A stretch of 64,000 bases of DNA from Agelas oroides (lineage: Eukaryota; Porifera; Demospongiae; Agelasida; Agelasidae), in assembly GCA_949130485.1 (NCBI GenBank), contig OX422183.1, positions 14,234,543-14,298,542 of the forward strand, given 5' to 3'. The notes below the pieces were generated by a model. It was not told where the DNA came from. It worked only from the letters and a program-made list of their open reading frames with translations, and ran no database searches. The translations under genes were made by a program, and so were the position numbers. The number at the start of each line of letters is the position of its first letter. Position 1 is the first letter of the stretch. This document shows, in pieces, positions 1-63,015 of the stretch.

Positions 1-1280
1 TAAGTCTTGCCATGTGCCAGGTAAGACCATGCTAAGTCTTGTCATGTGCCAAGTAAGATCATGCTAAGTCTTGTCATGTACCAAGTAAGACCATGCTAAG
101 TCTTGCCATGTACCAAGTAAGATCATGCTAAGTCTTGTCATGTACCAAGTAAGATCATGCTAAGTCTTGTCATGTGCCAGGTAAGATCATGCTAAGTCTT
201 GTCATGTGCCAAGTAAGACCATGCTAAGTCTTGCCATGTGCCAAGTAAGATCATGCTAAGTCTTGTCATGTGCCAAGTGAGATCATGCTAAGTCTTGCCA
301 TGTACCAAGTAAGACCATGCTAAGTCTTGCCATGTACCAAGTAAGACCATGCTAAGTCTTGCCATGTACCAAGTAAGATCATGCTAAGTCTTGTCATGTA
401 CCAGGTAAGATCATGCTAAGTCTTGTCATGTACCAAGTAAGATCATGCTAAGTCTTGTCATGTGCCAAGTGAGATCATGCTAAGTCTTGCCATGTGCCAA
501 GTAAGATCATGCTAAGTCTTGCCATGTGCCAAGTAAGATCATGCTAAGTCTTGCCATGTGCCAAGTAAGATCATGCTAAGTCTTGTCATGTACCAAGTAA
601 GATCATGCTAAGTCTTGTCATGTGCCAAGTGAGATCATGCTAAGTCTTGCCATGTGCCAAGTAAGATCATGCTAAGTCTTGCCATGTGCCAAGTAAGATC
701 ATGCTAAGTCTTGCCATGTGCCAAGTAAGATCATGCTAAGTCTTGTCATGTGCCAGGTAAGATCATGCTAAGTCTTGCCATGTGACAGGTAAGACCATGC
801 TAAGTCTTGTCATGTGCCAAGTAAGATCATGCTAAGTCTTGTCATGTGCCAAGTAAGATCATGCTAAGTCTTGTCATGTGCCAAGTAAGATCATGCTAAG
901 TCTTGCCATGTGCCAGGTAAGACCATGCTAAGTCTTGTCATGTGCCAAGTAAGATCATGCTAAGTCTTGCCATGTGCCAAGTAAGATCATGCTAAGTCTT
1001 GCCATGTGCCAAGTAAGATCATGCTAAGTCTTGCCATGTACCAAGTAAGATCATGCTAAGTCTTGTCATGTACCAAGTAAGACCATGCTAAGTCTTGCCA
1101 TGTACCAAGTAAGACCATGCTAAGTCTTGCCATGTGCCAAGTAAGATCATGCTAAGTCTTGCCATGTACCAAGTAAGACCATGCTAAGTCTTGTCATGTG
1201 CCAAGTAAGATCATGCTAAGTCTTGCCATGTACCAAGTAAGATCATGCTAAGTCTTGTCATGTGCCAAGTAAGACCATGC
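1..1280. repeat. 32-bp minisatellite, 40 copies
   Basis: Exactly 40 head-to-tail units of 32 bp (1280 = 40 x 32) with no length change. Variation is almost entirely two-state at about four positions: C/T after TTG, G/A in TGRCC, A/G before GTAAGA or GTGAGA, and C/T in GAYCATGC. It is cut by the window edge on the left. It ends at 1280, about 110 bp before a gene A exon, so it probably lies in a gene A intron. Each unit contains CCARGTAAGA, which resembles a 5' splice site. Confidence 0.97.
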
Positions 1281-1388
1281 TAAGTCACTTCTGAGATGAG
1301 ACTGTTCCCAACCTTGAAAACACCCCATATTTAATATTCTTATCATTCTTCATTGTGTGACAGTACACTTATTATTTGTCCCTATTAG

Positions 1389-1658
1389 ATTCCGCAAACA
1401 CAGTCTTTAATGTGACTGTTGATGTTGGAGTTCATGTGGTTACATGTCAGTTTCTGAATGGCCCAGTTACCTCTGCCACTTGCACTATTCAGTATGGGAC
1501 TGATCCAACATATGTGAATCTACCAAACACTGACTCATCCACTGGCACCAATGTCAACAATGTGACAGTTCCACTCAGTACACCACTCCAGGCTGACACT
1601 CTCTACTACTATGTTGTATCCTCCATGGGAGTACGAATGCAGGGCACATTTCGGACAG
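1389..1658 (+). CDS. Gene A receptor, FN3-like ectodomain exon
   Basis: This is the first visible exon of gene A; earlier exons lie left of the window. It encodes about 90 residues of a beta-sandwich, FN3-like domain beginning SANTVFNVTVDVG and ending near YYYVVSSMGVRMQGTF, with several N-x-S/T sites. It starts after CCTATTAG and ends before GTATGAGT, phase 1 at both ends, as usual for shuffled extracellular modules. The paralogous exon in gene B (43531-43794) is nearly identical, so the exon call is firm. The exact fold family is inferred. The product would be extracellular. Confidence 0.85.
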
Positions 1659-2002
1659 GTATGAGTCACTGATTTGTTTGTAGGAACATTGATGGCAGTA
1701 CCTTGTCTGCACTTCATTGTGAGTTTGAGTAACAGTCTAAGTTACATAATAATTTGGTCTCATGTCAGTGGGAACAAGGATACCATGCCGTAGGTTCTCA
1801 CCTTCCAACAGTGCATCAGTCTGCAAGTAGTCATGTGTCACTTGAGCATAAAGGTTTATCCTATGTATACTTCGCGTAGCTGACCCCTGAAGTGTCACTG
1901 ATTATTATTATAGAGAAACTCAAATTGCGTGGCAAAGTGCGTAATAGACCTATGGTGACTGAGGTAAAACTACATCTTTGAAGTGAGTATAAAAAGTTCA
2001 GA

Positions 2003-2343
2003 CTACCGTCATTATTCGAATAGAACGGTAGACAATTTCAAAACTGGCTTCCGCTAGATTAGATTCATAAAACTTCCAGGAAGCCAATTTCTTCCGTTAG
2101 ATTAGATTCATCAAACAATTCTTCTGAGCTGGAGCTGAAGATCACGCTATCGATGCTGAACCTGAAGATGATGATGAAGACTCATTTGCCTCTGACTCTC
2201 ACTCAGACTTGGACTCTGACTCTGTATTTGTGTTGCTGTTTTGATAAGAACATTTCCTGGTATCAGTTGTTCCGCTAAATTGGATTCACTAGAAAATAAT
2301 TAGTGTAGAGGCTACATTGGATCTACCGAATAATGACGGTATA
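2003..2343. mobile_element. MITE with TACCGTCATTATTCG ends
   Basis: It starts with TACCGTCATTATTCG and ends with the complement CGAATAATGACGGTA. Inside are three copies of a TTCCGYTAGATTAGATTCAT-like motif and a short Asp/Ser-rich coding-like stretch (about 2142-2220) resembling an acidic protein remnant. It sits in the gene A intron between the FN3-like and sushi exons; the matching intron of gene B lacks it, so it inserted after the duplication. A related right end is seen at 17211-17241. Confidence 0.7.
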
Positions 2344-2405
2344 TACAAATGCTCCTTTATATACACAAGAGGAGGCATGCAACAACTAATTTGCTATCTT
2401 GGCAG

Positions 2406-2633
2406 GTTGTGCACTGGCAGACCTTGGTGTTATGGACACAACTCCAGATGAGAGATGTGTTGGACTGCAGAACAGTGCTCAATTTCCAGGTGGAGCTGTG
2501 TGCTACAGTGGTGTCACCCCTGGGTCCCTTGCTGTCTACGTCTGCAACTCCACTCATCATTTGAAGGGCACCAGTTTGAGAGAATGCCAGAGTAATGGAA
2601 ACTGGAGTGGATCTGTTCCACAGTGTGTTCCTG
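2406..2633 (+). CDS. Gene A, sushi/CCP domain exon
   Basis: It encodes one complement-control (sushi) domain of about 75 residues, phase 1 to phase 1. Visible hallmarks are four spaced cysteines (CALADLG, ERCVGL and VCYSG, VYVCN, RECQSNG, PQCVPG), the closing G-x-W motif (NGNWSG) and a Gly/Ser-rich centre. Sushi domains bind proteins or glycans outside the cell. The acceptor is CTTGGCAG and the donor GTTAGT. The paralogue is 44377-44607 in gene B, which has one extra residue early in the domain. Confidence 0.9.
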
Positions 2634-3139
2634 GTTAGTTGTGCATGTATTCTCTCATGTCAACATAACAGTGGATATAACATGCAATAACCTGCAGTAT
2701 GATTAGTGTGGTGATTAGTGTCCATGCAGTTGTTGGGATTTTCATACCTAAGAAGATGTGTGGCACTCATAAGTTGCTGCATGGTTATACATACTTGCTA
2801 TGTATGATCACAAACTACCTTCCTTCAGCTATAGAAATGGGGCTAGTCGGGCAAACTACAATAATTATTACAGTAATTGTATACTGCTTCATGTGTACGT
2901 GTACAGTGGAATGAACGCACATTGTTAAGAGGAGAGTACAAGGCAGATGACATGCAATGACCAACCTAAGGGACTCGACATTTTCCGGGGTAGCACATCC
3001 CCAGACCCTCCAAGAAATTTAGCCATTTCAGACCCATAAACGTGCCTGACCATCTTCTGCATGTTCTTGGCTACACTCTACTAGCTCAGATTTTCCTTAA
3101 TTCCTTAATGAACTTCTGCATGCCTACGCATACCCCCAG

Positions 3140-3468
3140 ATTCACAGTCTTCTACTACTGGCTCAGTTCCAGAACCTGCCACTGATGGTCTCCGTGCTGG
3201 TACTGTTGTGGGTATTTCCATAACCATCTTTCTGGTGTCCTTCTCTGCTGGAGCCCTGCTGGCTTCACTCCTCACCTACTGCTGTGTGAGGAAGAGAGGG
3301 AAGAGCAGTGGACAGCAACATCTCCCACCATCAGGGGGCCCCCTGCCTGCTCCAGTGTATGATGAGGTGGGAGCAGGCAAGCTGGAGGTGAAAGAGAATG
3401 TTGCATATGGTCCAGCGGACACACTGGAGATGAAACAGAATCCCTCTTATGGTCCTGTAAGACGCTAG
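3140..3468 (+). CDS. Gene A, transmembrane and tyrosine-motif tail exon
   Basis: This is the last coding exon, starting after TACCCCCAG. A Ser/Thr-rich stalk leads into a membrane helix (about GTVVGISITIFLVSFSAGAL and beyond), the stop-transfer VRKRGK, and a tail of about 50 residues. The tail has three tyrosines: PVYDEV, VAYGPA and PSYGPV. Such Y-x-x-V/A sites are typical SH2-binding substrates, but only by pattern; none fully fits the strict ITIM form. The stop is at 3466-3468. Gene B has a shorter version lacking the first two tyrosine motifs. The product is a type I membrane receptor. Confidence 0.88.
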
Positions 3469-4779
3469 TTAGTTTAGATTGCTGCATTGACTCAGTAGAA
3501 CATGCACATGGATGTTATTATCAGCTTTAGAATAGTCATATATCTTTCTAGTTTTTTCTATCTTGCTCTTCATAGTCATTACTTGCTGATTGTAGCTATA
3601 TGTGAACTTTTGGAATCTGACTGATTATACTGATCCTAGTCTCTCAAGCTAAGCCATCTCTCACCCAGCCACTTCCAGAAAGATGAGGGAGTGAAAGTTA
3701 CTTATACTGATGTCCGAGTATATAGTTGCCACCATTCCTAAAATTAGCCAGTCAGCCTAACTGTTGGTACCATGTAACTATAGTCCTGTATATCCTGTGG
3801 ATCTCAATGCAGCTTTTGTCACCTCCAGAATTGTATGCTTCAAAGTAGACAAAACTAGTTTGCTGAGGTTTGGTGAATTGATTATGACATGTAGTATACA
3901 TGTAGTAAGATACGTATGTACATGCAATCACTTCATAGGCATTGTTTGTAGCTGACAAAAGGCTGAAGTTGTATAAATCAACTGCATGCTGTACGTCCAG
4001 ATTATCGTTGTGATGCTACTATGCATTTTTGCATGCATGCTAGAATGGGATTTATGGTAAATAATCAGATTGAGGGTATAGCCTGCATGAATGGTGTTGG
4101 TGAAAAACAAATTTCAGGACTACCATTCTCTCATATTTTGTCACATGATATCAAGGAAAATTAAGCATAGGTTGGTTGTATCATTGTTGTATCATTGTCT
4201 ATAGCTATTGCATGTTAAACAAGAGCTCAAGAATTTTCCTCTGATGTCACTATCGTTCTGTGCTTTATTGTTGCATGAATGTGCAACTACAAAGTTGATG
4301 ATTGATGCTACATGCACTCACCTTGGAGGTGTCTGCATATGAACTGCAGATGGAAAGGTATCTGGTGTATATTGTGCAAATGCACCATGTAATTTTTGTG
4401 CGTCACTGAAAGTAGTGAAGCAATGTTCCATACTTTTATTATCTTGAACTTTATTGACCCCATGGAAGTACACTTATGACACTCATTACATGAATTGTCA
4501 AAGTAACCAAAAATTTTAAATCAAATTCTGAAAGGGGGGATTCTAATTGAAGTTGTATTACAATTTCATAAACCTAAAAGTCAAACCAACACACAGTATC
4601 ATGCAGCAAGCCATAATACACTAATAGAGTTTCTAGTTACACATGTTGTCTTCTTAGCAATATCATATACAAATGCATACTATCACCTCAAATCCTTTCA
4701 GCCTACTAGCAAACCTGATTCTATTCAATAAAACTATTTGTAAAGTGTAAGGTCACAACAATTTGAGAAGTGGCTGTTC

Positions 4780-4902
4780 TCAGTCAGTCTTGACAGTGGT
4801 ATAGACCACTGGAGCTTCTGCTTCGGGAGCCTTGCCACTCGTATCAGGACCCTCACCAGTTGTATCAGGAGGTTTGGAGAAATCAACCTCAGCATATTTG
4901 AG
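4780..4902 (-). CDS. Gene C1, distal long-tail exon with two ITIM-like motifs
   Basis: This last exon of the long-tail form has 41 codons including stop, entered in phase 0 directly after a (CA)n tract ending in CAG. It encodes LKYAEV near the start and VVYTTV near the end, both fitting the ITIM pattern (S/I/V/L)xYxx(I/V/L), with the tyrosines 31 residues apart. The paralogue in C2 (46621-46743) has the same length. A TTTATT at about 4449 gives an AATAAA-type poly(A) signal on the minus strand. Its use in C1 is doubtful because upstream exons carry lesions. Confidence 0.8.
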   Translation of the reverse strand, partial: LKYAEVDFSKPPDTTGEGPDTSGKAPEAEAPVVYTTVKTD

Positions 4903-4924
4903 CTGTGTGTGTGTGTGTGTGTGT
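4903..4924. repeat. (TG)n tract at a splice acceptor
   Basis: On the minus strand this is (CA)n running directly into the acceptor CAG of the C1 terminal exon. A G-rich stretch follows on the plus strand (4925-4970). Confidence 0.85.
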
Positions 4925-5189
4925 TTGGGGGGGGGAGAGGGGGAGGGGGAAAAGAGGGGGAAAAATAAATGGTTCAGTAGGGTACTTGTCCATCCTCCCA
5001 CAGGTGTGTCAGACCAAAAATTATTTTTGTTGTTACGCTTAGATGCCCTTCCATCCTCCTCTTCCCTACACAAAGGACCTTTTGCAGAACGATTTTGTCT
5101 ATGATTACCTGTCCCAGTAAGCTTGGATGCCACAGCAGTAATTTTTAGCATGCTGGTCATAAGGGGACTTCCACTATCCACAATTTTTT

Positions 5190-7380
5190 TTTAGAATAAG
5201 CTGTGGGGTTTGGCCCCTTTAATTTCCTGACTCACATGCTAGCTGCGGATAGTGGGAGGGCCACTCACTGAGTACAACGAGTCCAGCATTGACATGGGTG
5301 TTGATTGAAGATTCTTTTAGTAAAAATGACAGTTCTACTAAAGTCAGGAGGATATTTTTTATCTTTTAGACAGGCACTGGATGCTTCTCATATATGTCTC
5401 TTTAATTTTCTCTCTTCATAGTTTTTCTTACTTGTGACTGTCTCCAAATGAGGCCCAGTAGCTAGGTACCACTAATTGTGTGGTGTTAACCACAGTACAA
5501 ATTGTCAATAACTGGCATTTATGCTGATCGAGGCACGGGTCCAGTAAGAAACTGATCTCGTTCAAAGTAAATGAAATCGGACCATCTATGTAACTGTACA
5601 TATTTGTCGCTGAATATCTCCTTAAGACTAATTTTGCTCTGGATTTGGGCAAAAATATAGCGTTTTGTTGTTGCTACAGTCGTGTAAGTTTCCGTTCTCC
5701 AAAATCAAAGGTCACTACAGCAGTCATATCAACCTACAAAGAAGACTGCAGTAGTCTTGAGACTCCATTCACTTGAATGAGCGGCTAGTACGTCCACCCC
5801 CATGTGATGAATTGCATCCACAGTTAATGTCACACATGATAAACGTACCCAGCTTTCCCCTACACCTTACTGCAAGAGCCCGGGAATAAGGCTAACAATA
5901 TTCCTATGAAGTGCTCTAGCCAAAGCTTACACAAGATCCCAGTCCCATAATACAAAGTTTACATTTCTGAAACCACAGATCTCCAAAATAGGTACACTGA
6001 AGTCAGAATTACTACCCACAGTGGTTGCCTGGTAACAACTGTGCAAAACCTTGTGGTATGGTAACCCCTACTGACTATGAATATCATTTTGCAAACACAC
6101 CCTGAACACAGTAACTGCCATTTATAGTCATGTGAGGTTAGTGTACTATGCTAGACTTAATTAACCAAAAATACCGTGCAAACTATAGGCTGTATAGAGT
6201 AGGAAGGCCTATAGGAATGAGGCTAGGCAGCCTACACATTCTTGTGCAGAGAAGCAGCAACTAGTGAGACCTCAAGGTAGCGATTAGGCTAGTGCTATGT
6301 GATTCCATGCGAACTGCCATAGTGGCCCATAGGGAAAGGATCATTTCAAGCAAAACTTGCCATACTACCAGATAAATTTCAATGTGCAGAACATTTTGGG
6401 GCATTCCCATCTTGAGCTCACCTGTCAAACAGTATTCACTGAACGAGTTTTGCAACAAGGGCAACATTCACTATGGGCTGCTAAGGCTGTATGGTTGCAT
6501 CATCATTTGTCCTACTTGCTACATTCAGCACACTATGCGCAATCAAGTACTAGCTTCCAGCCTCCTTTGATCCATGTGCACAGTATTTTCTAATGACGAT
6601 CTTGGAGACACACCAAGTATGTGCACAAAGAGTAACAAGTGATAGGCATGCAAAGCATGACAGAAGCAATGCCACTAGGCACTGGTGAATTATGCTGGCA
6701 TAATTTCTAGCATAATAGGTACCTTCTAGCATAGGAACATATGCTGGCATAACCATCATTATCAGATGCATATACTACACAGTCAAGCTAGCTAGCACAT
6801 AATACTGAGCATAACAGGAGGGTTTTAATAGCAAGGCTGGCATAGCATAATAGGGCAAAGGCTGAGTATAATTCGCCAATGCCTAAATACTATGCAATGG
6901 GTATTGGGGTTAGAGGCATGGTAGAGGCAAGCTAAACACTGATAGTAACAGATGTGGCCATATATGGAAGTGCTTTTTATAGCTCAAATGACCTCTAAAA
7001 ATAGCACATGTAATCACTCAGCTTGTTTAGCAAAGCAAAACACTACCAGGGTTGTAATATACTTGCCTTATAAGGTAAACACTGCCGTGTGTAATCTGTC
7101 AAATGACCTACTCCATATGGTATATCTAGTTAAAAGCACAACTTAGTAATACAGTGTGAAGCCATTTCCTTCTTGTGCAACACAAAGAGGAAACTGGACA
7201 TGAATTTATCTTTTGCTCAGCTCACTTTAAAGCCACTTATCTACTGAAATAGTTAGTGGTTCTAGGCGCTGTCCTGTATGTTTTGTATTAGTCTCATGCA
7301 GCCAGACTCCAGCGAGAGTTTGGGTGCATGACACTAGCTTGTATAGTACTTTTTCATGTGACATCATCACCTTCCGAGAA
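5190..7380. other. Non-coding intron sequence of C1, duplicated in C2
   Basis: No exon seen. This stretch matches 47480-49420 in the same order with many small changes and indels, which is direct evidence for the segmental duplication. ORFs here are short, not conserved in frame between the copies, and interrupted by indels, so I do not call genes. Confidence 0.7.
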
Positions 7381-7613
7381 CCTCTGCCACATTGGTGTAC
7401 AAGAAAGTAGTAGCTAGTGATCTTGACAAACGGAGAGATATACTCATGATGCGTCTAGTATGTGTTAAATCGGACAAATACCACTGCTACATGAATAAAC
7501 CCAGCAAGTGGTTCACTAATGCACGAGTACGGAGTGTGATTGAAACCTTCCAAGTATGTACACCTATCTATCATGACAGTTCAAGATTCTTGAAGGCCTA
7601 GTGTTACACTTAC

Positions 7614-7706
7614 TCCTTGCTCTTGCGGTTCCTCTGTGGGTTTCTTCGTTTCTAGCACGTCATATGTCCCTTCAGTAGGAGCTTCAGTGTCAGTGGGTTG
7701 AGGATC
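7614..7706 (-). CDS. Gene C1, long-tail exon with TYDVL motif
   Basis: A 93-nt exon (31 codons, phase 0 to 0) beginning [10 protein letters not shown], containing GTYDVL and ending EPQEQG at a GTAAGT donor. The acceptor CAG is the end of a long (CA)n tract (7707-7840 on the plus strand). It joins in frame to 4780-4902. The C2 copy (50690-50782) has the same length and nearly the same protein. The YDVL tyrosine is a plausible SH2 site but lacks the -2 residue of a strict ITIM. Confidence 0.8.
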
Positions 7707-7842
<136 letters not shown>

Positions 7843-8122
7843 AGGGGGGAATTAATGAATGTAGAGACTTTCTCCTTGGCACTATCATGTTTCATGGATA
7901 GAAATTCGTATGTTCTGTTCATCATAAATACATTGCAACTTTCTGATAAAGGGCTCACATGAGGTATTGAATGTGTTTGCCCCACCAACACTTTTGTGCA
8001 CATACCAATATAGCTGAAGCTTACCCCAAGTCTTGAGTACAATACACTGTTAAGTATAGGTGTTGAAGAATTGCAGCCAGCAAGCATATAGTTTTCAGAA
8101 ACAAACAGCTTGACCAAGGCCA

Positions 8123-8153
<31 letters not shown>

Positions 8154-8171
8154 ACCTAGACAATGCTTTCC

Positions 8172-8214
8172 CGGCTTATCTGTGCCAGCATCAGGAGGGC
8201 CTTCTTCTGACTTC
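8172..8214 (-). pseudogene. Gene C1, long-tail linking exon with lost donor
   Basis: Homologous to C2 exon 51375-51423. The acceptor is intact (TTGTCCACTGTAG) and the phase correct (2 in, 0 out), encoding KSEEGPPDAGTDKP. The donor is not: where C2 has CAG followed by GTACTA, C1 has CCG followed by GGAAAG, so GT has become GG. Without it the C1 long-tail transcript should not splice normally. Read-through or a cryptic donor cannot be excluded. Confidence 0.65.
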
Positions 8215-8787
8215 CTACAGTGGACAACAAAAGAATAAAGTACATCTGTGATCTGGTAATCCAAATACTGCAGGTTTGGTCTTTGGAAGCATTCTCAAGA
8301 TCTCTCTCACGCCAGCCAACTATGTAGTTCAGGTGTGTTAGATTGTTTTTCACATATACTAAACAAGCGATCAATATTTGGACACCACCAATAATCAGAT
8401 GGAGAAATAAGTCGTGCAGATATACAGTTGTACAATGGAAACGAACGCCAAGTACACTGTATCTGACAACTGAAAAATGGAGCTTGAATTCACGATAGAG
8501 ACAATTAGTGAAACTGCTGCCTGAAACATTTGAAGCAACTCTGGACAAGATTTGCGCACCTTTTCTTGGAGAGCTGGTATAAGACACTATAAGACACCAT
8601 GAGACACTACGAGACACCATAAGGCATTCTAAGAAACCATGTATAACCAAGTTTCTACTTGGCTCAGTAGCTGTGTATGACCATCTGATTATTGGTGGTG
8701 TTGAAGTATTGATCACTTACTCTACTTTCAGATTTGCCACTTTGTAGCAGCATTGCAAAAAATATCTAACATAATACATAATACATG

Positions 8788-9100
8788 TTATAGATAAACC
8801 ACAGTAGACAGGGATTTATGGTCCATAAACCACCCGAGCCCGAGGGCGCAGTAGACAGGGATTTATGGTCCATAAACCACCCGAGCCCGAGGGCGCAGTA
8901 GACAGGGATTTATGGTCCATAAACCACCCGAGCCCGAGGGCGCAGTAGACAGGGATTTATGGTCCATAAACCACCCGAGCCCGAGGGCGCAGTAGACAGG
9001 GATTTATGGTCCATAAACCACCCGAGCCCGAGGGCGCAGCCCAAGGGCGAGGGTTGTTTATGGACCATAAATCCCTGTCTACTGTGGTTTATCTGTTATA
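8788..9100. mobile_element. Foldback element with internal 47-bp tandem array
   Basis: The ends are inverted copies of GATAAACCACAGTAGACAGG (left about 8793, right about 9074-9093) followed by a near-palindrome TTTATGGTCCATAAA. The left arm is expanded into five exact 47-bp units (8802-9036), each containing the near-palindrome and a CCCGAGCCCGAGGGCG block. Copy 2 (around 52.2 kb) lacks it, so it is younger than the duplication. The plus-strand ORF through it is an artefact of the repeat. Confidence 0.85.
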
Positions 9101-9500
9101 TTCTCCACTCTGATTGGTCCTTGTTGTTATTAGTAAATACACATGGTAGTTTTCACTGTAAACAAGGTATGTTATTAGTAAACATGTAAAGTAATTTACA
9201 CGCTAAACAAGGTAGCTTATAGGAAACATCATTTTACAACTTCCTGTGGTATATGGAACAGAATCTACAGAATCTACAACTTCCTGTCAGTATATGGAAA
9301 ATAATACCCACCTGTTACCACAGAAACAAGGGTGAAGTGGAGTATATAGACAAATACAACCCCAACAACATTCAATAACAAATATACCTGTACATTGTGG
9401 TTGCTATTTCCACATACACAATTATAAACCTCCTAATAAACCCACGAAGATTAGTTCAGTAGCAAACTAGCACTTTGTCCTTCTGTTCAGTCTACAGTTA

Positions 9501-9717
9501 CTAATCCATTTTCACTGGCTCATATGCCACATTTCCAGTTTGATCAGTTGGCCCCGAGTATCTTCATAGGCCACATTCTTTTCCACTTCAATCTTCTTGC
9601 CCGGCTGTGTATATGGATTCTGGCCCTGCATATCCACCTCATCGTACGCTGAGGCCAACTGCTGCTGTTCTTTCACAGGCTTAGAGCTACGCTCCTTCTT
9701 GTTCAACCTGTTGATAC
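9501..9717 (-). CDS. Gene C1, alternative short-tail terminal exon (frameshifted)
   Basis: It is entered in phase 2 after GTCTGTATCAACAG and encodes LNKKERSSKPVKEQQQ, then SAYDEV (fits ITIM), then VAYEDT. Near the end the frame shifts: a missing A in a GAAA run sends the reading into an early stop at 9512-9514. The other frame continues as NVAYEPVKMD to a stop at 9501-9503 and matches NVAYAPV in C2. So C1 has lost its last ITIM-like tyrosine in this tail. The hydrophobic-looking peptide just upstream is translated intron, not a second membrane helix. Confidence 0.75.
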
Positions 9718-9719
9718 AG

Positions 9720-12345
9720 ACAGTGACCCACATAGCCCCAGCGATAAATGTCACCAGTGAGTGTGGAGACAATAGTGTTTATCTTCACTGAACAGGTACT
9801 CTTCTGCTACAGTGCAACCACATGGTAACAGCTTAGTGAGACGAAATCCGAAACGGAAAGTCTTAAGTTCGAGGGCCTATACCTTACCTTAACCCTTCTT
9901 TCTATAGTAACAGTAAAATGCTCACAGGAAGTTCTAGTAAGATATGTATCACAGGAAGTTGTAAACTACTTTGTTTACAGTATGAAGTGCAAGCTACTTT
10001 TGTGTATAGTATAGGGAATAAAACAACAAGGACCATGCAATCAGGAGGAAGAATAACGAATTGGGGGGTCCATTAGTCTGAAATATGTTATAAAAACAGC
10101 ATGTGCAGCTTGTGCTGAATCAACTACTTATACATTTGCTGAATAAGACAGTATAGCATGACAGGGTTCCCCCCATCCTTGTTTGAAACCCTGAATATCC
10201 TGTTATGACTGAGCATGTCAAGGAGAGGAAATGATTTGACAGTGGGAAAAGCCCTGGCTTCAGATGGTTGTTGAAAGCCAGTGGCTTTTTGGGACACAAT
10301 AATAGGTCCCTTCTTCTACCCATTCACATGCCTCGATCATTTTATTGCTTGGATGACCACCCAAAGTTGGTGTTGGGCCAGAACCAAGACTAAAACCTAT
10401 AACTAAACTCTTCTGCACTCAAAACTGAGCTGTGCTCTAAAGCTTTGCCTTCAATCTTTCTCAGGTAACCAACTTTTTCTCAGTCATACATGCAGTCTTC
10501 ATAGAGGTGCTATAATCAAACCAACTCCAGCATGGATTGCTTTCAGTTACCATTATCCAAAGAATAAACACACTGGGTGAGGTGTAAATACACAAGCACA
10601 TGACTACCTTCATTAGTGGAAAACTAAAATAAAACTATGACAACTCAAGACCGTTCATTTTGTGCTATGTAAGAGCATAGCCATTAGTCATATATCACCA
10701 TAGCAATGAGCATATACTCAATAAACACACTGGATGAGGTGTGGGAATGAGCGTAAGAAGGGCTATAACTTGCCACTGGCTTTCAATAGCCAGACAAAGC
10801 CACAGCTGTCCCTGTGGCTGTGCAGTGTTGACCAGTGCAATGTGGTTTATTGATTGGGGAACAGCACTTCCTCATGTACAGTGGCTTTGAGCATTCCACA
10901 AGTTCTTACTAGCACTCGCAGCTGCATATATACACAAGCACATGACTCCTTCATTGGTGGAACTCTATAAAAACTATGACGACTCAAGACTGTTTATTGT
11001 GTGCTGCATAAGAGCTCAACGATACCTAGTACCATAGTCATTAGTCATATATCGCCATAGCAATGAGCATATACTGAGCTTTTCAATTCCCTTTGAACGG
11101 AAATTGTTGTCTTGCCAATGAAATGCTCCGCCCAATTTACAGTAGAATGCTACTGCCATTCTACTGCTGCTGAATCAGCAGTAGAATGTGGATAAGCAGC
11201 AGAATGTCAGTAGAATGGCAAATACAGAAGCCACAAATACAATGTATGGGGAATGTAGAACATTGTGGGGCGAGCGTGAGCAAGCAATGCACTACAGCAT
11301 TGAACTGTTATGTAGCTAAAGCTTTACCAGTGAAGTATCAGATCACAGCACACAGGCCATTCATGTAGCTAAAACGAGATTTGTAACTCTATTGTCTACA
11401 AAAGTGCTCAATATAGCTTAGAAAAATTGTCATGGTTGCAGAGAAGAGCTTTTCATGGGGTAGTACTACACAACAGAGCCGTTTGTCCTACTAGCACGCA
11501 GCTACTCTGGTTGTTGCAGTTATAGGCTAAGTCAGAACACAGTCTGGCATGCATATAGTCCTTCAAGACTTGAGGCATCTTTGAGAAATAGTATAGGGAA
11601 GTAGCCACACATCAGCTATGGAGCAAAATCTCTGCCGCCTACTGCATCCGGTAAGCTGCATGTCATTGAGCCTTTCTACACAACTGTTAGCCCTTGTACA
11701 CTTAGTAGTTACTGAGTAGGTGCTATGCTCCAGCTGTGTATCCCAAATGTCGTCGCCAAAACAGAACTGCTATATCTCGTACAATAGGTGTGCACGCTCT
11801 GGCTGTCATTCTTGGCTATCTTTCATAACTGTCGTCATTCACTAGCTTGCTGCCAGAGCATCAAGTTAATACACTCCGCATGCGGCCTGCGGCTATCGCG
11901 TTAAATTACAGCGTCAAGAATATACGGAACGACGTATGACAGAAAATAATAAATGAAAAATTGCAGTACAACACACTAGTGTGGGGCTCGCCCAATTATA
12001 AAGCCATACCTAGTCAAGTGCTAACAGTGAGCCAGCTAGTTTTGAATCCTTACACTGTCAATTAGTGGTTTTGAGTACTACTGCTTCTGTTTCAAAAGCC
12101 AGTGTAGTGTTCACAAAACAGATACCATCAAAAGGTTCAAAGGTTTTCAAAAGGTCAAAGATCAACAAAGCATTTTACATTGTCATGACATCACAGCTGG
12201 AGTGGTGCTTTCAACTTTTAAAATTTTGATCACTTGTTACTACCCATGCCATGTTGATCTTTGACCTTATGGGATTACATATCCTTTTTTGAGTCCCTCA
12301 AACATGTATAGACATGCATGGTAATGGCTCTACTATGGGCAGACG
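9720..12345. other. C1 intron with insertions
   Basis: No exon recognised. Parts (10080-10330, 10900-11070, 12110-12345) match C2 intron at 54585-54790, 55230-55365 and 55370-55520. About 11075-12100 is absent from C2 and carries inserted elements. Around 11141-11225, CAGTAGAATG repeats in both orientations can fold into a stem. Confidence 0.6.
11250..11997. mobile_element. Inserted element with GGGGCGAGCGTGAGC ends
   Basis: The left end (GGGGAATGTAGAACATTGTG, then GGGGCGAGCGTGAGC) and the right end (GTGTGGGGCTCGCCC) match those of the element at 46972-47405, which sits at a different place in the other duplicate. It therefore moved independently. The class is uncertain; subterminal inverted repeats with a small end hairpin would suit a Helitron or Helentron-type non-autonomous element. 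Confidence 0.5.
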
Positions 12346-12349
12346 TCCA

Positions 12350-12351
12350 TA

Positions 12352-50689: not shown

Positions 50690-51058
<369 letters not shown>

Positions 51059-52732: not shown

Positions 52733-52995
52733 AAGAGCACGTAAGAACGGGCGGCTAGAGTAAGAGCGTGTAACTACGTAAAATTCGAAACCGGACGGAA
52801 TTTACCGCCAGTACTAAAAATAGTAACACGCACTGCGCACGCTGCGTTGACATAAGCCCTTATGCATTGTTGCTAAGTGCACACGTGACTGGATGTTCTA
52901 TTTTTAGTACGGTTCAATAATTTTTCCCGGACTACGGGCTTCTATTGGAGTTACACGCTCTTACTCTAGCCGCCCGTTCTTATGCGCTCTTGGTC
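52733..52995. mobile_element. Foldback MITE, CAAGAGCACGTAAGAACGGG ends
   Basis: Arms of about 43 bp at 52733-52780 and 52950-52992, inverted, with GGCGGCTAGAGTAAGAGCGT in each. Inside, TATTTTTAGTACGGTT also pairs with ACTAAAAATA. Absent from C1. Confidence 0.88.
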
Positions 52996-53875
52996 TATAG
53001 TATAGTGCGCAGAGTGACAACATGTGCACTTGTCCCTTAACCCTTGTTACTCCTATAATAACAGTAACAGGTGGGCACCAATTTTCCCCCATATGTTCTC
53101 TGGCTCTCCTCCTTAGCAAGGAGAGCTTGGGATAGTTGGGAATGAGGCTACCCCATATGCTCAGAGGAAGTTTTAGTGATTATACATACCACAGGAAGTT
53201 GTAATCTACTTTTTTTACAGTACAAGCTACTTTGTGTGTATCAGAGGGAACAATAACAACAAGGACCACACAATGAATTAGAAGAACATGACACTTGTAG
53301 CATGATAGCCATACGCATTTATCATAAATCCCTGGCTACATAATGTGAAACTGCAGCCACAGAAAGTTGTTGGCGTGAGTCATAGCCAGTGACTAAAATG
53401 ACTAAGCTCCAAGGATCCATGCAGACACAAAATCTATGTACAGGGCTCAATTTCCCTTAATCAGAATGCACTTGAATCTCAGAGTTGCATACAGGCATTT
53501 CAGCATTTCAAAAGCTTATAGGGAGACTAAAGACCAGGCTATATATAGTGCTCTTTTGATCATAACAGCTGTAGCCATTTAAAATCCATACTATGCAGAA
53601 CAAAGTCTTCACATATAAGCTCCTTTGTGTCAAATAGCTGCTTACTGAGTGCCTTCAGACTTACTGCTTTTTGTAACTAGTCTCTTAGTACTAGTCTCTA
53701 GGTTGAGTCAATGTCAATTTTCCAAGTGCCAAGTTGGTCAAAAAATAACATTTCGAGTAGCTGTGTTTGACAGTTTGTCCTCCAGTTTTTTGGTCAAAAC
53801 TAAAAGAGTCAAAATTTAGTCAGAAGCTACAGGGCATAGAACTGTGATTTTCCACAGCAAATAAAAGTGCTTTGC

Positions 53876-54524
53876 TACCGTATTCACTCCAATTTATGGA
53901 ATAATTGTATTGGCGACCGTTCCACGTTAATTAGAATGTGTTAAAAATCGCTTCCCTTCGCGTTCAAATAAGTTTTTGCACGTCTCAAAAGCAGTTAAAC
54001 AGCTACTGAAAAAAGCGATTTGTAACGATGTCAACGCCCCGGATAACACAGAAATCTCTCCTAGCTTACGCTGTGGAGACTCCCAGGGGTGAACATTCAT
54101 CGCTGCAATCAAGGAGATAGTTGCCAGCTGTGAACTGTGGCCCTGGTCGACCGACAGATTCACCATGGCCGTTGTTATATGCAGCATTGATAACAGCAAT
54201 ATCACTGTTGGCCATCTATCTAGAGAATTCAGCCGCTTACTCTGGCATTTTCTGACTCGCGGAGGAGAAATGAATGCAGAAGGCGACAGCGCTTGCCACT
54301 CATTCAAGGCGGATTGAAGATTCCCTGCTACATAATGCACCATGGGAAGAAGTTGGTGGTACGAGTGAGCATTATAGCAGGAGAAATAAAACTGAGTAGA
54401 ACTTGCCTGTTCAAGTGATTAGAATGGCTATTTATTTCAAAAATTCATTTGTTCCATTAATTAGAGTGAATTAAAGTTTTGCATTCCAATAATTAGAACG
54501 TAACAAAGCAAATACAGTATATTT
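53876..54524. mobile_element. MITE with TACCGTATT ends and 138-codon ORF
   Basis: The left end TACCGTATTCACTCCAAT and the right end, read inverted as TACTGTATTTGC...CTAATTATTGGAA, are similar. A minus-strand ORF at 53927-54343 fills the centre; it matches no family I know and may be chance or a captured fragment. Confidence 0.55.
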
Positions 54525-55770
54525 GATGCAAATTTAGTAGCGGTAGGAATTTATTGGGCATATACATGTAGCTGTTAGTCTGAAATATTAATATCATTAT
54601 AAAACAGCATGTGCAGCTTGTGCTGAATCACCTACTGCTGAATAAGACAGTAGGGAATTTCCCAGGGTTTCCCCCATCCTTCATACCCTGAACATCATGT
54701 TATGACTGAGCAGATCAAGGATTTAGACAGTGGGAAAAGCTCTGGCTTCAGATAGTTATTGAAAGCCAGTGGCTTTTTGGAATACAATAATATAAGTCCC
54801 TCCTTACTCTCATTCACACACCTCATCTAGTGTGTATATTGCTCGGATAATGGAAACTGGATAAAAGCGAGCCACATGGAGTTGTTGTTTTAGGCCAGAA
54901 ACGAGACAAAAACCAGTAACTAAACCCTTCTGCACTCAACGTTATTCACTTTGGAAAACTGGGCTGTGCTCAAAAGTATCTCAAGCTTTGCCCTCAATCA
55001 CTTCTCAGGTAGCCAACTTTTCACAGGCCATAGTACATAGAAAGACATGACTATTATGTATATAGGTTTTGTTGATTACACGCTGAACTTCAATTTAGAG
55101 GTCCTTGAATTTGGAAATTGGTTTTGCTCAAGCATCTCGTCCTTGACCGTTTCTCAGGCAACTTTTCATATTCATACATGCAGCTCTCATAGGAGTGTTA
55201 CAATCTAAACTGGCTGAGTAGGGTTCGCATATACATAAGCACATGACTATACTGACATTGGTGGAAACTACAAAAACTATGACTCAAGACCGTTCATTGT
55301 GTACTCCATAAGAGCTCAACGACACCATAGTCATTAGTCATATATTGCCATAGCAATGAGCACATACAGTAGTGTTCACATAAGGGCTCAAAGGTTTTCA
55401 ATAAGTCAAAAGGTCAAAGATCAACAAAGCATTTTACATTGTCTCGATTTCATTGAGTCCCTCAAACATGTATAGACGTGCATTGTAATGGCTTCACTAT
55501 GGGCAGACTGTCCATGCTACATATTTAATACACAAATCATAAAGGACATGTTACCACTTCAAATGCAAAAGCTGCGTGGGCAAGAATTTAATATAACACA
55601 GCACAAAGCTTTGAGATCGCATCCAAGCACCCTATTCAGTAGCACACAATTATTTTGCTCTTTAACAGAACAAAGAATTGTGCCCACGCTCTCATACAAT
55701 ACACATGCTGCACTTGCTATTTGAATGAATAACCAGTTACAAACAAACATACACAAGGATGGCAACTTAC

Positions 55771-55801
55771 TTCAGTTGAAGATCTGCTGTATCTTTCTCT
55801 T
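55771..55801 (-). CDS. Gene C2, juxtamembrane microexon (31 nt)
   Basis: Acceptor TTGAACTTTTCCAG, donor GTAAGTTG, phase 1 in and 2 out. It encodes about EKDTADLQL. Six bases longer than in C1 with phases kept. It links the membrane exon to either tail. Confidence 0.75.
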
Positions 55802-55961
55802 CTGGAAAAGTTCAATGAAACAGAAAGTTAAGATGCAAACATTATGTACAAATTATGGTACACATCTTTAGAAATTATGCCATGGATTGTTTTTCTGAAT
55901 TTATGTTTGCACTGCAAACCGGAAAGCTTCCTTTGCCAAGACAGACCTACAGGAGTCTAGC

Positions 55962-56440
55962 AGCATACCGCATAGCTAGAAATTTTCGAGGACTAAAATT
56001 TTCTCGGTTTTCGCGGATTCGCATCACACCTCGAAATTTTCACCCTTGAAAATTTTACCCTCGGCCCTCAAAATTTTTTGCATTGTAACACCTGCTACTT
56101 GAGCTGACACGCCAGCTGTTTCAGTGTTAATCGCCATGGCTCTTTACCGATACTTTCAAACCTCCAACAAATCAACGACGCTACCTGATCACCATGGTCC
56201 TCTCTCTTGATTGCTGCCTTCATCCTCCGTAGCATTGGCAAACAAGAAAGTGAAAGATTTGTGGAAGAATGAAGAGTGTACTGCGGGAAGAAAAAGAACT
56301 CGATACTTGAAGATTTCTCAGGAATTGAAGGCAGAAATCGGCAGGCGGGCAGCATCCTCGAAAATTAAATCGCGAAAAGTTTGCCGAAGGGCTATTCGCG
56401 AAAATTTTAATCCTCAAAAATTTCTAGCTATACGGTATAT
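55962..56440. mobile_element. MITE with TACCGYATAGCTAGAAATTT ends
   Basis: Left ATACCGCATAGCTAGAAATT, right AATTTCTAGCTATACGGTAT; TA flanks. Inside, CGAAAATTTT words recur on both strands. Absent from C1 intron (about 14880). Confidence 0.88.
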
Positions 56441-56529
56441 GGCCCCAAAGTTACCTCAACTGTGTTCTCAGAGTATTTTAATTTTCTTGGGCCAATTCTC
56501 CTCATACCAGGGCCCCATCTGCTATGCAC

Positions 56530-56606
56530 CTAGCCTCGTTCCCAGGCCCTGCGCGTTCGTCGCTTGCAGTACGAAATTCGCGCAGAGGGCCTGGGAACGA
56601 GGCTAC
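56530..56606. mobile_element. Hairpin MITE, TAGCCTCGTTCCCAGG family
   Basis: A 77-bp palindrome, TAGCCTCGTTCCCAGGCCCT outward, with TGCAGTACG near the loop. Absent from the C1 copy. Confidence 0.88.
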
Positions 56607-57345
56607 TATGCACCTACTTAGAGGAGGCAGGATATATATGACGTTACACTGTATAGCAACAATTAGTGTGCTCTGACGACATTCCAAGGGCAAGAATCTT
56701 GGATACAGGCTGCTCTACAGACAAAGTAACAATGGGTGCTAGGGTTTTAATATATCTGGCTAGTCAAAATTGGTTATTATGACTAAGCTTGTAATTTGTT
56801 TGTTCAATGCTAGGTGAGTCACAAGAGGCAAATTTGTCTGCCAGACATCTCCAGCTTTGTTGAAAACCTCATGTGCCAATCACACCCATCACACACATCA
56901 CACCTACCGCGTCCATCACACCTATTGTGCACCCACCGCACCCATTGCAACTTTGTCTATAGAGCCGTTCTTGTATCCACAATTCTTGACTTCGGAATGT
57001 AAGTTAATTGTTACTATCATGTGATCATGTCCTTCCTCCCCTGGCACCTACCCACTATTCAGACCAAAGCCTTTATCAGGAGTGCTTTTATCACCACTAG
57101 ATCAGTTGCTCAACACACAAATTTTAGGCGATGAGTCATAGGTGCATACGTAAAGTACATACATGTGTACTGAACGAGGAGAGAGCCAAAATCACGCACA
57201 AAACCATGCACACTATGTCATGGGCCACGGGATTAAATCTTTCAGGCTCTCTCCTGCTTTTCTGGGGAGGAGTCTGGGTACGAGGCTACATACATATATA
57301 CTGAACATGTGCTACAATAGTACATGTAGCAGCGGTCACACTTAC

Positions 57346-57570
57346 TGGGTGAGTTCTTTGCCTTCCTCCAAATCAAATATGCTACGATGATAATGATCAG
57401 GACGATGAGAACTGCACCAATAAGTCCACCTATCACTCCTCCTGCAATAGCCCCTGCTGATACACCTCCAACATCACCAGGGGAACCTGTTGTTGTTGGA
57501 GGCTGTGTCTGAGTTGGTGGTTGAGTTGGTGCTTGAGATGGTGATTGGGTTGGTGTTGGAGATGATGTAG
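57346..57570 (-). CDS. Gene C2, mucin-like stalk and transmembrane exon
   Basis: Phase 1 to 1, acceptor CACTCTCTACAG, donor GTAAGTGTG. Repeated PTQ-type Thr/Pro/Gln stalk, then GAIAGGVIGGLIGAVLIVLI and the stop-transfer WRKAKNSP. Gly-x-x-x-Gly spacing in the helix suggests helix packing. Intact, unlike C1. Confidence 0.9.
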
Positions 57571-57685
57571 CTGTAGAGAGTGACATACACCTTAATCGCT
57601 CCCATTACAGAGAATGTGACATACTTAGTTTTTAGTTTTCATAGAACTATATACAATTAGCTTATGGTAAGACTTCCAATTAGAC

Positions 57686-61014: not shown

Positions 61015-61100
61015 GGAGGTAGCAGCAATGAGAGGCTGACTGACGTAGGAACAACCTCATTTGTGCCTACATCAGTCAGCCTCTCATCGTTTCTGCCTCC
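61015..61100. other. Pre-miRNA-like hairpin
   Basis: 35-nt arms (61015-61049, 61066-61100) with about five mismatches and a 16-nt loop; core AGAGGCTGACTGA. Size and mismatches would suit a precursor miRNA, but a decayed palindromic MITE is equally likely. Strand unknown; it lies in a C2 intron. Confidence 0.4.
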
Positions 61101-61351
61101 GACAGTGTCACTGCACTCATAATATGTATTATGTCAACTACTCTTCTAACAAAACAGCCAGAGATTCTGCTGGTGAGATTGTTTGCTAAACTCATAATAC
61201 TGCTTGGAATTAACAGGAAATTCTCACTATACTAAGCTACTTTCAGTTACTTTTCAGCTACTTTGTCAGCACTTCAGATTAACAGAAGAATCCAACAATC
61301 AACACACATACACATCCATAACACACCATAACAGAAATGCTTTAGCCTTAC

Positions 61352-61562
61352 CGAACAGTTCAGGAGTAGTTTGTCCACTCAAGCCAAAATCATTCCTCAG
61401 TGAGAGACTGATATTGTAGCTTGTCCCATTTACAATGTTGTTGATGCGGAAAGGTTGGTTACTGGATACAGAACGACACTCGTCTGTACAGTTGTCTCCA
61501 GTACAATAGTTGACACAAATATCCCTGGGGGGTAGCGTAAGCCCACTGTTTTCTGTGCGGTC
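61352..61562 (-). CDS. Gene C2, FN3 domain second half
   Basis: Phase 0 in (GCTTCACAG), phase 1 out (GTAAGG). It encodes DRTENSGLTLPPRDICVNYC, and later FRINNIVNGTSYNISLSLRN, FN3 C to G strands with N-linked sites. Corresponds to gene B 42988-43216. Confidence 0.75.
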
Positions 61563-62140
61563 CTGTGAAGCAAACCGCATTAAAACAGCTGTGTTACCAT
61601 ACAATTATATGCATACATGTACAGATACAAATTCCAGTGTCTAATATGCACAGGTGGTTGTGTTTGTAATGGTATCACACATGAAGGGACTTAAACTAGT
61701 CTTCAGTACACCACATCCATAAGCTCAATGATGATTATGTGGGCACAGTCAAAGTCATAAAATTATTACCTATGAAGTTTAATTTAAGTGGCTATTTTAA
61801 CTATGTAGTAAAAGAGAGCACCCCCTTTACCAGCCTCATTCTGCACTAGAAGCTAAGAGACTTCCCTATTATGTAATACCAAATTCCACATGTCTATATA
61901 TACAATGTATTGGCTAACATTACCCAGCTGTCACATGCACTTGCTGACAATAGCAATGACAAAGATGAGCTGTGTGACAACTTTTCTAGACAGCGAGGGG
62001 ACTTTTCATATTCACTCTCCATGAAAATCTACGATTTTATGCATCACTATTTTCAATTGAAATATATTAATTGATGCTCATCTCATGAGACTGAGTAAAC
62101 CCATTAAGGAAATTTACATACATGTACATGCTATCATACC

Positions 62141-62213
62141 TGCCAGACAACATTAACAAACTCAAGATCAGGGCAGTCAGGTTGAAATCTGATGAAAGTT
62201 GGAGCATAAGGTA
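62141..62213 (-). CDS. Gene C2, FN3 domain first half (possible frameshift)
   Basis: Acceptor TTTTTCTCTCCTAG, donor GTATGAT. It begins PYAPTFIRFQPDCPDLE. The length is 73 nt, but 74 is needed to join the next exon in phase 0; one base appears missing near 62160. Either a sequence error or a disabling mutation. Confidence 0.55.
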
Positions 62214-62712
62214 CTAGGAGAGAAAAAGAGATACCAAGTAAACACACCTAGAAATGATGTGAACAAACAATATAAATATAAACTTCATATAATGTAATGG
62301 TTGATTCAGAACTCAGTGTAGGGGTACACTCTTTCCTGCCCATTATAAGGGAAATGAATAGATAGTGTGATTTTATACACACATGCACCTTCTGTTGTTG
62401 ATTTCTTTCGTGTTTTGATTTGTTTACAATGCCATTGCTACCTCTAGCCAGGTGCTTACAGTACTACTAATGACCAATCAGATGCGGAGTTCACTTTTTG
62501 TGCAGCTGAGCCATGTAAAAAGTGAAATCCACATTTGATTGGTTGATAGCGGTGGAATTTGGGATAAATGGTATGTATAGTCTTACAATACAAACTTTAA
62601 GTACCTATACGATTAAAATTGATATCAGTCATAGTTAAAAAGTAAGTAATATTAGTCTAATATAGGAATTAGGAAAAACCGTATTATGTACTAGATCAAT
62701 TGCTCTATATAC

Positions 62713-63015
62713 CTTGTAGGTGTATAGGTGAACTTGCAGGCCCCCTCAGGTCCCCTCGGCAGTTAGCTGCCGTCACTGTGAAGGTATACCTGTCACCTTC
62801 CTGTGGTGTTATCTGTATTGAGCATGTGTAGTTACGTTCAGTCACCCTCTGGACCATGTTGCTATTCCCACACAGATCCTCAGGACCAGAGATATTGACA
62901 AAGTAGGCATCAATGGTTTCATTCATGTCCAGTGGAGGCTCGAGCCATGTGATGATGAACTGCTCCCTCGGGGTGGGAAATGTCACAGGTTCAGTCCTTG
63001 GAGCAGCTGGCGGGG
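62713..63015 (-). CDS. Gene C2, FN3 domain exon
   Basis: Phase 1 to 1, acceptor GTTTCCAG, donor GTATATAG. PPAAPRTEPV, IITWLEPPLD, YFVNISGPEDLCG, YTFTVTAANC: an intact FN3 domain matching gene B 40865-41176. Earlier C2 exons lie beyond the window. Confidence 0.88.

What the first reader, a model, noticed from the sequence alone, without database searches (positions are those of the whole stretch)
1..63015. A duplicated cluster of paired Ig/FN3/sushi receptors with tyrosine-motif tails: candidate recognition locus
Seen: four related type I receptors in two convergent pairs, tandemly duplicated about 42 kb apart, with shared signal/Ig exons, variable domain make-up and tails that differ in tyrosine motifs. 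Known: clustered, paired, fast-changing receptors with ITIM-type tails serve immune or allorecognition roles (Hydractinia Alr genes, vertebrate KIR/LILR). Inference: this may be a comparable sponge or basal-animal system.
Basis: partly seen in the sequence, partly recalled or inferred. Interest (0 to 1): 0.88.

Follow-up and report, generated by a model that had tools for sequence, protein, structure and literature searches.

The report
Sponge Ig receptor cluster, shuffled heads
A sponge chromosome carries a large, fast-changing family of cell-surface receptors whose recognition domains look shuffled between different signalling tails, a layout resembling the immune and self-recognition receptor clusters of other animals, although what these receptors recognise is unknown.

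Summary
The duplication is real, but the four receptors are not equal. G3 (37992-45585, +) is a complete gene model: signal peptide, V-like Ig, FN3, PKD-like, FN3-like, sushi, TM, short tail. G4 (-) reads open through its TM and starts outside the window; one linking tail exon was not found. G1 is open only with a weak splice acceptor and no signal exon was found. G2 is frame-broken. The units are collinear about 42 kb apart, yet their Ig exons are swapped: G1 shares its Ig with G4, G2 with G3. In both pairs one tail has ITIM-form tyrosine motifs and its partner none, as in vertebrate paired receptors. For G1-G4 the Ig exon has dS 0.12, the next exon 0.54, so heads moved between bodies. Four searches give at least 65 distinct related Ig exons, all 65 on contig C1, 14.1-23.8 Mb. 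Five gene sets elsewhere have the SH2-SH2-phosphatase order of SHP, the usual ITIM reader. Silicatein marks a demosponge. 68 of 70 dN/dS values are below 1; positive selection is not shown. Expression, polymorphism and ligand are untested. Most likely a sponge paired-receptor family for immune or self recognition; allorecognition is possible, unproven.

The parts
1389..1658 (+). G1 FN3-like exon (called D4), phase 1-1
   Evidence: 86% aa identity to the G3 copy
2406..2633 (+). G1 sushi exon, phase 1-1
3167..3468 (+). G1 TM and tail exon with stop: YDEV, VAYGPA (ITIM form lost at +3), NPSYGPV
   Evidence: acceptor not unique (3140, 3167, 3173)
4780..4902 (-). G2 last tail exon, ITIM-form LKYAEV and VVYTTV
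   Evidence: assigned to G2 by strand, place and phase
7614..7706 (-). G2 tail exon, YDVL motif, next to a CA/TG microsatellite
9542..9757 (-). remnant of a third TM/tail type (no acceptor found)
12636..14444 (-). reverse transcriptase open frame inside the G2 span
   Evidence: PF00078 E 1.8e-35
16449..16576 (-). G2 TM exon, frame broken
23643..23954 (-). G2 Ig exon (type B), phase 1-1
   Evidence: 87% aa identity to G3
24155..24224 (-). G2 signal peptide exon
37992..38061 (+). G3 signal peptide exon
38297..38608 (+). G3 Ig exon (type B), phase 1-1
40865..41176 (+). G3 FN3 exon
   Evidence: PF00041 over cut-off
41835..41920 (+). G3 PKD-like domain, first exon (phase 1-0)
42988..43216 (+). G3 PKD-like domain, second exon (phase 0-1)
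43531..43794 (+). G3 FN3-like exon (D4)
   Evidence: Pfam only below cut-off
44377..44607 (+). G3 sushi exon
   Evidence: PF00084 over cut-off
45350..45585 (+). G3 TM and shortened tail (NPSYGPV only) with stop
   Evidence: acceptor not unique (45350, 45365, 45371)
46621..46743 (-). G4 last tail exon, ITIM-form VLYSTV
   Evidence: assigned to G4 by strand, place and phase
50690..50782 (-). G4 tail exon, YDVL motif
52436..52603 (-). remnant of the third TM/tail type
57346..57570 (-). G4 Pro/Thr-rich stalk and TM exon
61352..61562 (-). G4 second FN3-type domain, second exon
62140..62213 (-). G4 second FN3-type domain, first exon
62713..63015 (-). G4 FN3 exon (gene continues outside the window to 67691)
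   Evidence: Pfam fn3 23.5 bits, just below the 25-bit cut-off

Best explanation
The window holds part of a large family, nearly all of it found on C1, of type I membrane receptors of a demosponge. Each intact member has an N-terminal V-like Ig head, a stalk of FN3-type and other domains (PKD-like and sushi in the plus-strand type), one TM helix and a tail with tyrosine motifs. Most likely they work as paired recognition receptors. A surface ligand binds the Ig head (inferred). Kinases phosphorylate tail tyrosines (inferred). ITIM-form sites (such as NVAYGPV, LKYAEV, VVYTTV) recruit SHP-type SH2-SH2 phosphatases and inhibit (the sites and gene sets with that domain order are shown; binding is inferred), while partners with the same head but no ITIM-form site signal otherwise or are taken up through NPxY (inferred). 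Diversity comes from exons of one splice phase, nearly all 1-1, that move between gene bodies and strands, so one head is joined to different tails (shown by the crossed Ig exons). The role is probably immune or self/non-self recognition; which of the two is open.
For: G3 is an open 579-residue reading over 8 exons with consistent phases, FN3 and sushi over Pfam cut-offs. Ig assignment: invariant Cys, Cys, Trp, Cys columns; a profile of 8 members gives antibody chains in 58 of the 60 PDB rows shown (199 in all at E up to 2), best E 0.0036. Crossed heads: Ig of G1 and G4 84% aa, of G3 and G2 87% aa, while FN3 of G1 is 71% like G3 and 61% like G4. Ig G1-G4 dS 0.12 against FN3 G1-G4 dS 0.54; 11 of 98 against 29 of 75 sites, p 4e-5. 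Ig homology of G1 and G4 runs from -12 to +3 around the exon and the flanking introns score like shuffled sequence. 65 distinct Ig exons, 65 on C1 (from 86 rows, of which 85 are free of stops); Pfam sushi control: 28 of the 150 listed on C1 (hand count). ITIM form in 10 of 14 tails. Four SH2-SH2-phosphatase runs on C3 and one on C28. G1-G3 exons: w 0.51, fewer nonsynonymous changes, p 4e-4.
Against: No transcript, protein, ligand or polymorphism data. 68 of 70 pairwise dN/dS values are below 1. Conservation of tail tyrosines and +3 residues over the rest of the tail is marginal (0.94 against 0.74, permutation p 0.057, six tails). Single Ig exons hardly match Pfam: 0 of 12 match an animal Ig model at E up to 1, 1 of 8 matches PF00047 at E 0.01. 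G2 is broken and G1 doubtful, so in this assembly neither pair is shown to have two intact partners. The exon linking TM and tail in the minus-strand genes was not found. The SHP-type sets rest on domain order only; their letters could not be fetched. Two of 36 tail matches lie on C6.
Confidence: 0.58

Rival explanations
1. Adhesion or developmental receptors: the genes code for cell-contact or matrix receptors that expanded by birth and death, and the tyrosine motifs are general SH2, PTB and endocytosis sites, without immune or self recognition.
For: FN3, PKD-like and sushi domains are common in adhesion proteins (recalled); 68 of 70 dN/dS values below 1; NPxY-form motif in 7 of the 8 plus-strand tails. 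PMC11999971 (passages) links sponge Ig proteins mainly to adhesion and intercellular recognition.
Against: Crossed heads with contrasting tails and 65 divergent Ig exons confined to one contig are unusual for a housekeeping adhesion set (inference).
Confidence: 0.2
2. A mostly dead array: G3 is a chance survivor of a decaying tandem family with little present function.
For: G2 is broken and G1 open only with a weak acceptor; a copy near 213.7-214.0 kb has its FN3 exon split over two frames; a reverse transcriptase frame, a satellite and hairpin repeats sit in the locus. Four tail matches and two FN3 matches carry stops.
Against: G3 and G4 up to its TM are open with consistent phases; G1-G3 exons show fewer nonsynonymous than synonymous changes per site, p 4e-4; 85 of 86 Ig rows are free of stops.
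Confidence: 0.12
3. A version of the best explanation: an innate pattern receptor family aimed at microbes or symbionts, not at other sponges.
For: Large diverse germline Ig families with contrasting tails fit pathogen or symbiont recognition as well as allorecognition (general knowledge).
Against: Nothing that I found in the sequence separates this from self recognition.
Confidence: 0.35
4. Assembly artefact: the two units are haplotypes of one locus placed in tandem.
For: One 200-N gap at 63570-63769; sponge genomes can be very heterozygous (recalled).
Against: Pooled dS 0.23, different Ig heads, introns that mostly do not align, and several further copies on both sides.
Confidence: 0.03

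Closest known systems
Vertebrate paired Ig receptors (KIR, LILR, SIRP, Siglec; recalled)
   Same: Clustered Ig receptors; similar heads on tails with and without ITIM-form motifs; head/tail exchange and broken copies; genes with the SHP domain order present in the genome.
   Different: Heads are followed by FN3-type, PKD-like and sushi domains; heads are shared across opposite strands; a charged TM or ITAM adaptor partner was not looked for.
Hydractinia Alr genes in the allorecognition complex
   Same: Many diverged Ig genes and pseudogenes in one large interval (at least 41 Alr loci, PMC11067881 passages); Ig nature supported there by structure prediction; single-pass proteins; ITIM and ITAM motifs reported on candidates (PMC12065747 passages).
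   Different: Sequence relation was not tested; domain make-up differs from what I recall of Alr; no graft genetics here.
Botryllus fester co-receptors (FcoR) of the fuhc locus
   Same: Type I proteins with a V-type Ig, a sushi domain, one TM and a long tail with ITIM, hemITAM or YxxI/L/V motifs, encoded beside a partner gene (PMC12065747 passages).
   Different: FcoR has two C2 Ig domains and no FN3 or PKD-like domain in that description; relation not tested.
Sponge aggregation factor family
   Same: Candidate sponge allorecognition molecules.
   Different: Recalled as secreted proteoglycan core proteins; no sequence relation tested. A grafting transcriptome in Amphimedon found no significant enrichment of aggregation-factor adhesion genes (PMC5450542 passages).

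Membership tests
V-type immunoglobulin domain | Cys-Trp-Cys core and profile similarity to known V domains | tested here: met
   Invariant Cys, Cys, Trp, Cys columns in 8 members; antibody chains in 58 of 60 PDB rows shown, best E 0.0036; a 12-member profile gave only E 0.09 or worse, 9 of 10 rows antibodies.
V-type immunoglobulin domain | Single exons match a Pfam Ig model clearly (E 0.001 or better) | tested here: not met
   0 of 12 members match an animal Ig model at E up to 1, 2 match bacterial Ig-like Big_3_5 at best 0.014; 1 of 8 matches PF00047 at 0.01
ITIM-bearing paired receptors (works like) | Shared head, one tail with ITIM form, one without | tested here: met
   Ig type A: G4 with, G1 without; type B: G2 with, G3 without. 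G2 is broken, G1 doubtful, and minus-strand tails are assigned by strand, place and phase
ITIM-bearing paired receptors (works like) | SHP-type SH2-SH2-phosphatase genes in the genome | tested here: met
   Domain order in 5 runs, C3 and C28; sequences not read
ITIM-bearing paired receptors (works like) | Phosphorylated tail binds SHP and inhibits | not testable with these tools
   needs biochemistry
Hydractinia Alr family | Sequence homology to Alr proteins | not tested
   no Alr sequence was at hand
Allorecognition determinants in general | High polymorphism and co-segregation with fusion or rejection | not testable with these tools
   one assembly only
Vertebrate KIR/LILR (membership) | Orthology to the leukocyte receptor complex | not tested
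   not filed as a member; only a working analogy

The most novel reading that the evidence does not exclude
The 14-24 Mb part of C1 is a sponge self-recognition complex: dozens of Ig receptors whose heads are swapped between inhibitory and non-inhibitory tails by exon exchange across opposite strands, read by an expanded set of SHP-type phosphatases. That would place ITIM-type paired-receptor recognition at the base of animals.
Probability: 0.2. Interest if true: 0.93.

Novelty: new variant of a known kind. Interest (0 to 1): 0.62.

Why it matters
The genes behind sponge graft rejection are not established: a recent review calls the mechanisms of invertebrate allorecognition a mystery and places ITIM-type signalling in such systems from cnidarians to mammals (PMC12065747, passages). 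A sponge family found almost wholly on one chromosome-scale contig, with crossed heads, ITIM-form tails and several SHP-type phosphatase sets, gives a concrete region to map by crosses or grafts, and would extend that signalling logic to sponges. In nine searches of the paper library I saw no title or abstract start that describes this family; some listings were partial (20 of 228), most subscription journals are missing, and bioRxiv is largely not held.

Tried and rejected
Rejected: haplotype artefact (divergence, different heads, further copies). Rejected: confinement to C1 as a general property of sushi-type genes or of the search tool, since the 150 listed Pfam sushi matches lie on 11 contigs with 28 on C1 (hand count; 150 of 1010 candidates scored) and the 65 silicatein-like matches on eight contigs, none on C1. 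Tried without result: a signal exon for G1 in 21.5 kb upstream; the exon linking TM and tail of the minus-strand genes; silicatein copies as a control for intron loss, useless because those copies are too diverged; positive selection (two of 70 values above 1); tyrosine conservation (p 0.057). Exon-only homology of G1 and G3 suggested exon-by-exon homogenisation, but about 130 bases of the intron after the PKD-like domain align between G1 and G3, the intron after FN3 gives z 5.3, and introns of G1 and the copy near -60 kb, and of the copies at 123 and 140 kb, align in part. Faster intron turnover is therefore a rival and gene conversion is not claimed as shown. The third TM/tail type inside G2 and G4 was first taken for part of those genes and is now read as a remnant. 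G1 was first called broken; the re-check shows it is open with a weaker acceptor, so I now call it doubtful and lowered the dead-array rival from 0.14 to 0.12. Naming the species was not possible: size and scaffold lengths resemble Spongilla lacustris (248.7 Mb, 70 scaffolds, longest 31.14 Mb; PMC12141999 passages) but do not match that assembly.
Full report
Setting. The window lies at C1:14234543-14298542 of a 259.3 Mb genome in 141 contigs; C1 is 32.7 Mb long. I read 324 kb around it. The genome is most likely a demosponge: two gene copies carry the silicatein active-site form CGASYAFS or CGASYVFS with serine in place of the cathepsin cysteine (silicatein as a sponge marker is recalled). Of the six loci read first, four showed cathepsin-type motifs and two none. 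Size and largest scaffold resemble Spongilla lacustris (PMC12141999, passages) without matching it.

Duplication. Nucleotide comparison of the window with 20 kb on each side shows direct matches from -2791..16691 to 40861..57587, offset 40.8-44.6 kb, pieces of 70-90% identity and one microsatellite piece at 97%.

Gene models. They were made by comparing copies and by scoring splice sites with approximate weights. G3 has 8 exons and reads open for 579 residues: signal peptide, Ig, FN3, a domain split over two exons that Pfam calls PKD (26.8 bits alone against a cut-off of 23.5; 23.0 in the whole protein), an FN3-like domain with only a sub-threshold Pfam match, sushi, TM and a short tail. G4 reads open for 426 residues over 6 exons, from a signal exon at 67691 to the end of the TM exon at 57346; its exact start codon is uncertain. 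Two tail exons that fit each other in phase follow, but an exon to bridge the phase from the TM exon was not found. G1 is open from the Ig exon to its stop only if a weak acceptor at -2047 is used; with the acceptor that matches G3's it stops at residue 239. No signal exon for it was found. G2 has open signal and Ig exons, no FN3 exon on its strand, a frame-broken TM exon and open tail exons. So of four receptors one is complete as modelled, one probable, one doubtful, one broken.

Crossed heads. The Ig exons do not follow the tandem order. G1 carries Ig type A, as does G4 on the other strand 70 kb away (90.8% nucleotide identity over 402 bases). G2 and G3 carry type B (345 nt at 92%). Unit 1 therefore reads A+ ... 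-B and unit 2 B+ ... -A, while the bodies stay collinear. For G1 and G4 the Ig exon has dS 0.12 and the FN3 exon dS 0.54; the counts differ at p 4e-5. The head was thus shared more recently than the neighbouring domain. The same type A exon occurs at 89185-89568 and about 150217-150594, there with a second Ig type (C) after it and a TM exon further on. Homology of G1 and G4 type A is limited to the exon (-12 to +3) and the adjacent introns score like shuffled sequence, z 0.5 and -0.4. Three G1-G3 introns (inside the PKD-like domain, before sushi, after sushi) also fail to align, z 0.5 to 1.6, though the intron after FN3 gives z 5.3 and about 130 bases after the PKD-like domain align. The intergenic stretch 4363-5107 aligns with z 131. 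Exon exchange, inversion between the inverted gene bodies, gene conversion and fast intron turnover all remain possible mechanisms; that heads and bodies have been recombined is the shown part.

Ig identity. 0 of 12 members match an animal Ig model of Pfam at E up to 1. A profile of those 12 finds 10 PDB rows, 9 of them antibodies, none better than E 0.09. A broader profile of 8 members, including one from 23.25 Mb, gives antibody chains in 58 of the 60 rows shown of 199, best E 0.0036; the other two shown are tropinone reductase. I call the domain V-like Ig on this and on the conserved Cys and Trp columns.

Family size and place. At E 1e-3, single-protein searches gave 9 matches (type A), 24 (type B), 29 (type C) and 24 (the 23.25 Mb type), all on C1. 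These 86 rows merge to 65 distinct places from 14.09 to 23.84 Mb, in ten groups more than 400 kb apart. FN3: 18 of 18 on C1. The YEEV/NVAYGPV tail: 34 of 36 on C1, 2 on C6. The minus-strand tail: 5 of 5 at 14.18-14.29 Mb of C1. Controls: the 150 listed Pfam sushi matches lie on 11 contigs, 28 on C1 by hand count; silicatein-like matches lie on eight contigs. All counts are lower bounds by the tool's own statement, and tandem copies are not independent.

Tails. Of 14 tail sequences from the 324 kb, three of them partial, 10 hold at least one cytoplasmic ITIM-form motif ([ILVS]xYxx[ILV], recalled definition); one pattern match in the G1 TM helix was discounted. Within the window, G1 has VAYGPA (lost at +3) and G3 keeps only NPSYGPV, while G2 has LKYAEV and VVYTTV and G4 has VLYSTV. 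So each shared head sits once on an ITIM-form tail and once on a tail without one. In six plus-strand tails, motif residues are more conserved than the rest of the tail, but only at p 0.057.

Readers of the tails. SH2 gives 97 matches, 3 on C1. Combined with phosphatase matches (180, not all listed), four runs on C3 have the minus-strand order SH2, SH2, phosphatase N part, phosphatase C part (1476861/1475009/1473004/1471635; 1445827/1444931/1442862/1441343; 1423855/1421053/1416164/1413682; 1397213/1394945/1392710/1391969) and one on C28 (40395/39460/38126/37211). That is the layout of SHP phosphatases (recalled). Their letters could not be fetched.

Selection. 70 pairwise dN/dS values over eight exon sets, each set a chosen part of the copies found, run from 0.15 to 1.16; two exceed 1. 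Ig type C pairs, six of seven copies used, reach 0.44-1.16; the FN3-like exon 0.15-0.60. G1-G3 pooled over four exons: dN 0.116, dS 0.227, w 0.51, p 4e-4 for fewer nonsynonymous changes. This speaks for coding genes that change fast, not for positive selection.

Literature. Passages of PMC12065747 describe Botryllus FcoR receptors with V-type Ig, sushi, TM and ITIM or hemITAM tails, and state that candidate proteins are not conserved between sponges, cnidarians and ascidians. Passages of PMC11067881 give at least 41 Alr loci and many presumed pseudogenes in the Hydractinia complex. Passages of PMC7385117 report tandem and widespread segmental duplication in the freshwater sponge Ephydatia; the words immunoglobulin and allorecognition do not occur in its main text. 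Duplication itself is thus ordinary in such genomes.

Verdict. A real, large receptor family with head/tail mosaicism; a paired-receptor mode of action is the best supported reading; allorecognition is one of several possible roles.

Noticed in passing
L041, C1:20570800-20572150 (-): A 433-residue open frame that is a TM helix followed by many repeated tyrosine motifs (NEAYGPV, YEEV); a second place with the same matches lies near C1:20.789 Mb.
   Followed up: partly
C3:1.39-1.48 Mb and C28:37-40 kb: Five runs with the order SH2, SH2, phosphatase, suggesting an expanded SHP-type set.
   Followed up: partly
window -15483 to -4116 (L004, L005): A nest of direct and inverted copies of a roughly 1 kb repeat, up to 99% identical, just upstream of G1.
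   Followed up: no
window -908 to 1286: A 32-base tandem satellite, in the G1 intron before the FN3-like exon.
   Followed up: no
C1:6.4-7.0 Mb, C12:4.9-6.4 Mb, C18:0.5-0.6 Mb: Dense runs of tyrosine phosphatase matches, possible receptor phosphatase arrays.
   Followed up: no
window 7566-7880 and 50642-51100: Long CA/TG microsatellites directly beside the acceptor side of the minus-strand tail exons in both units.
   Followed up: no
window 27834-28451: A 150-base inverted repeat, 100% complementary, with 318 bases between the arms.
   Followed up: no
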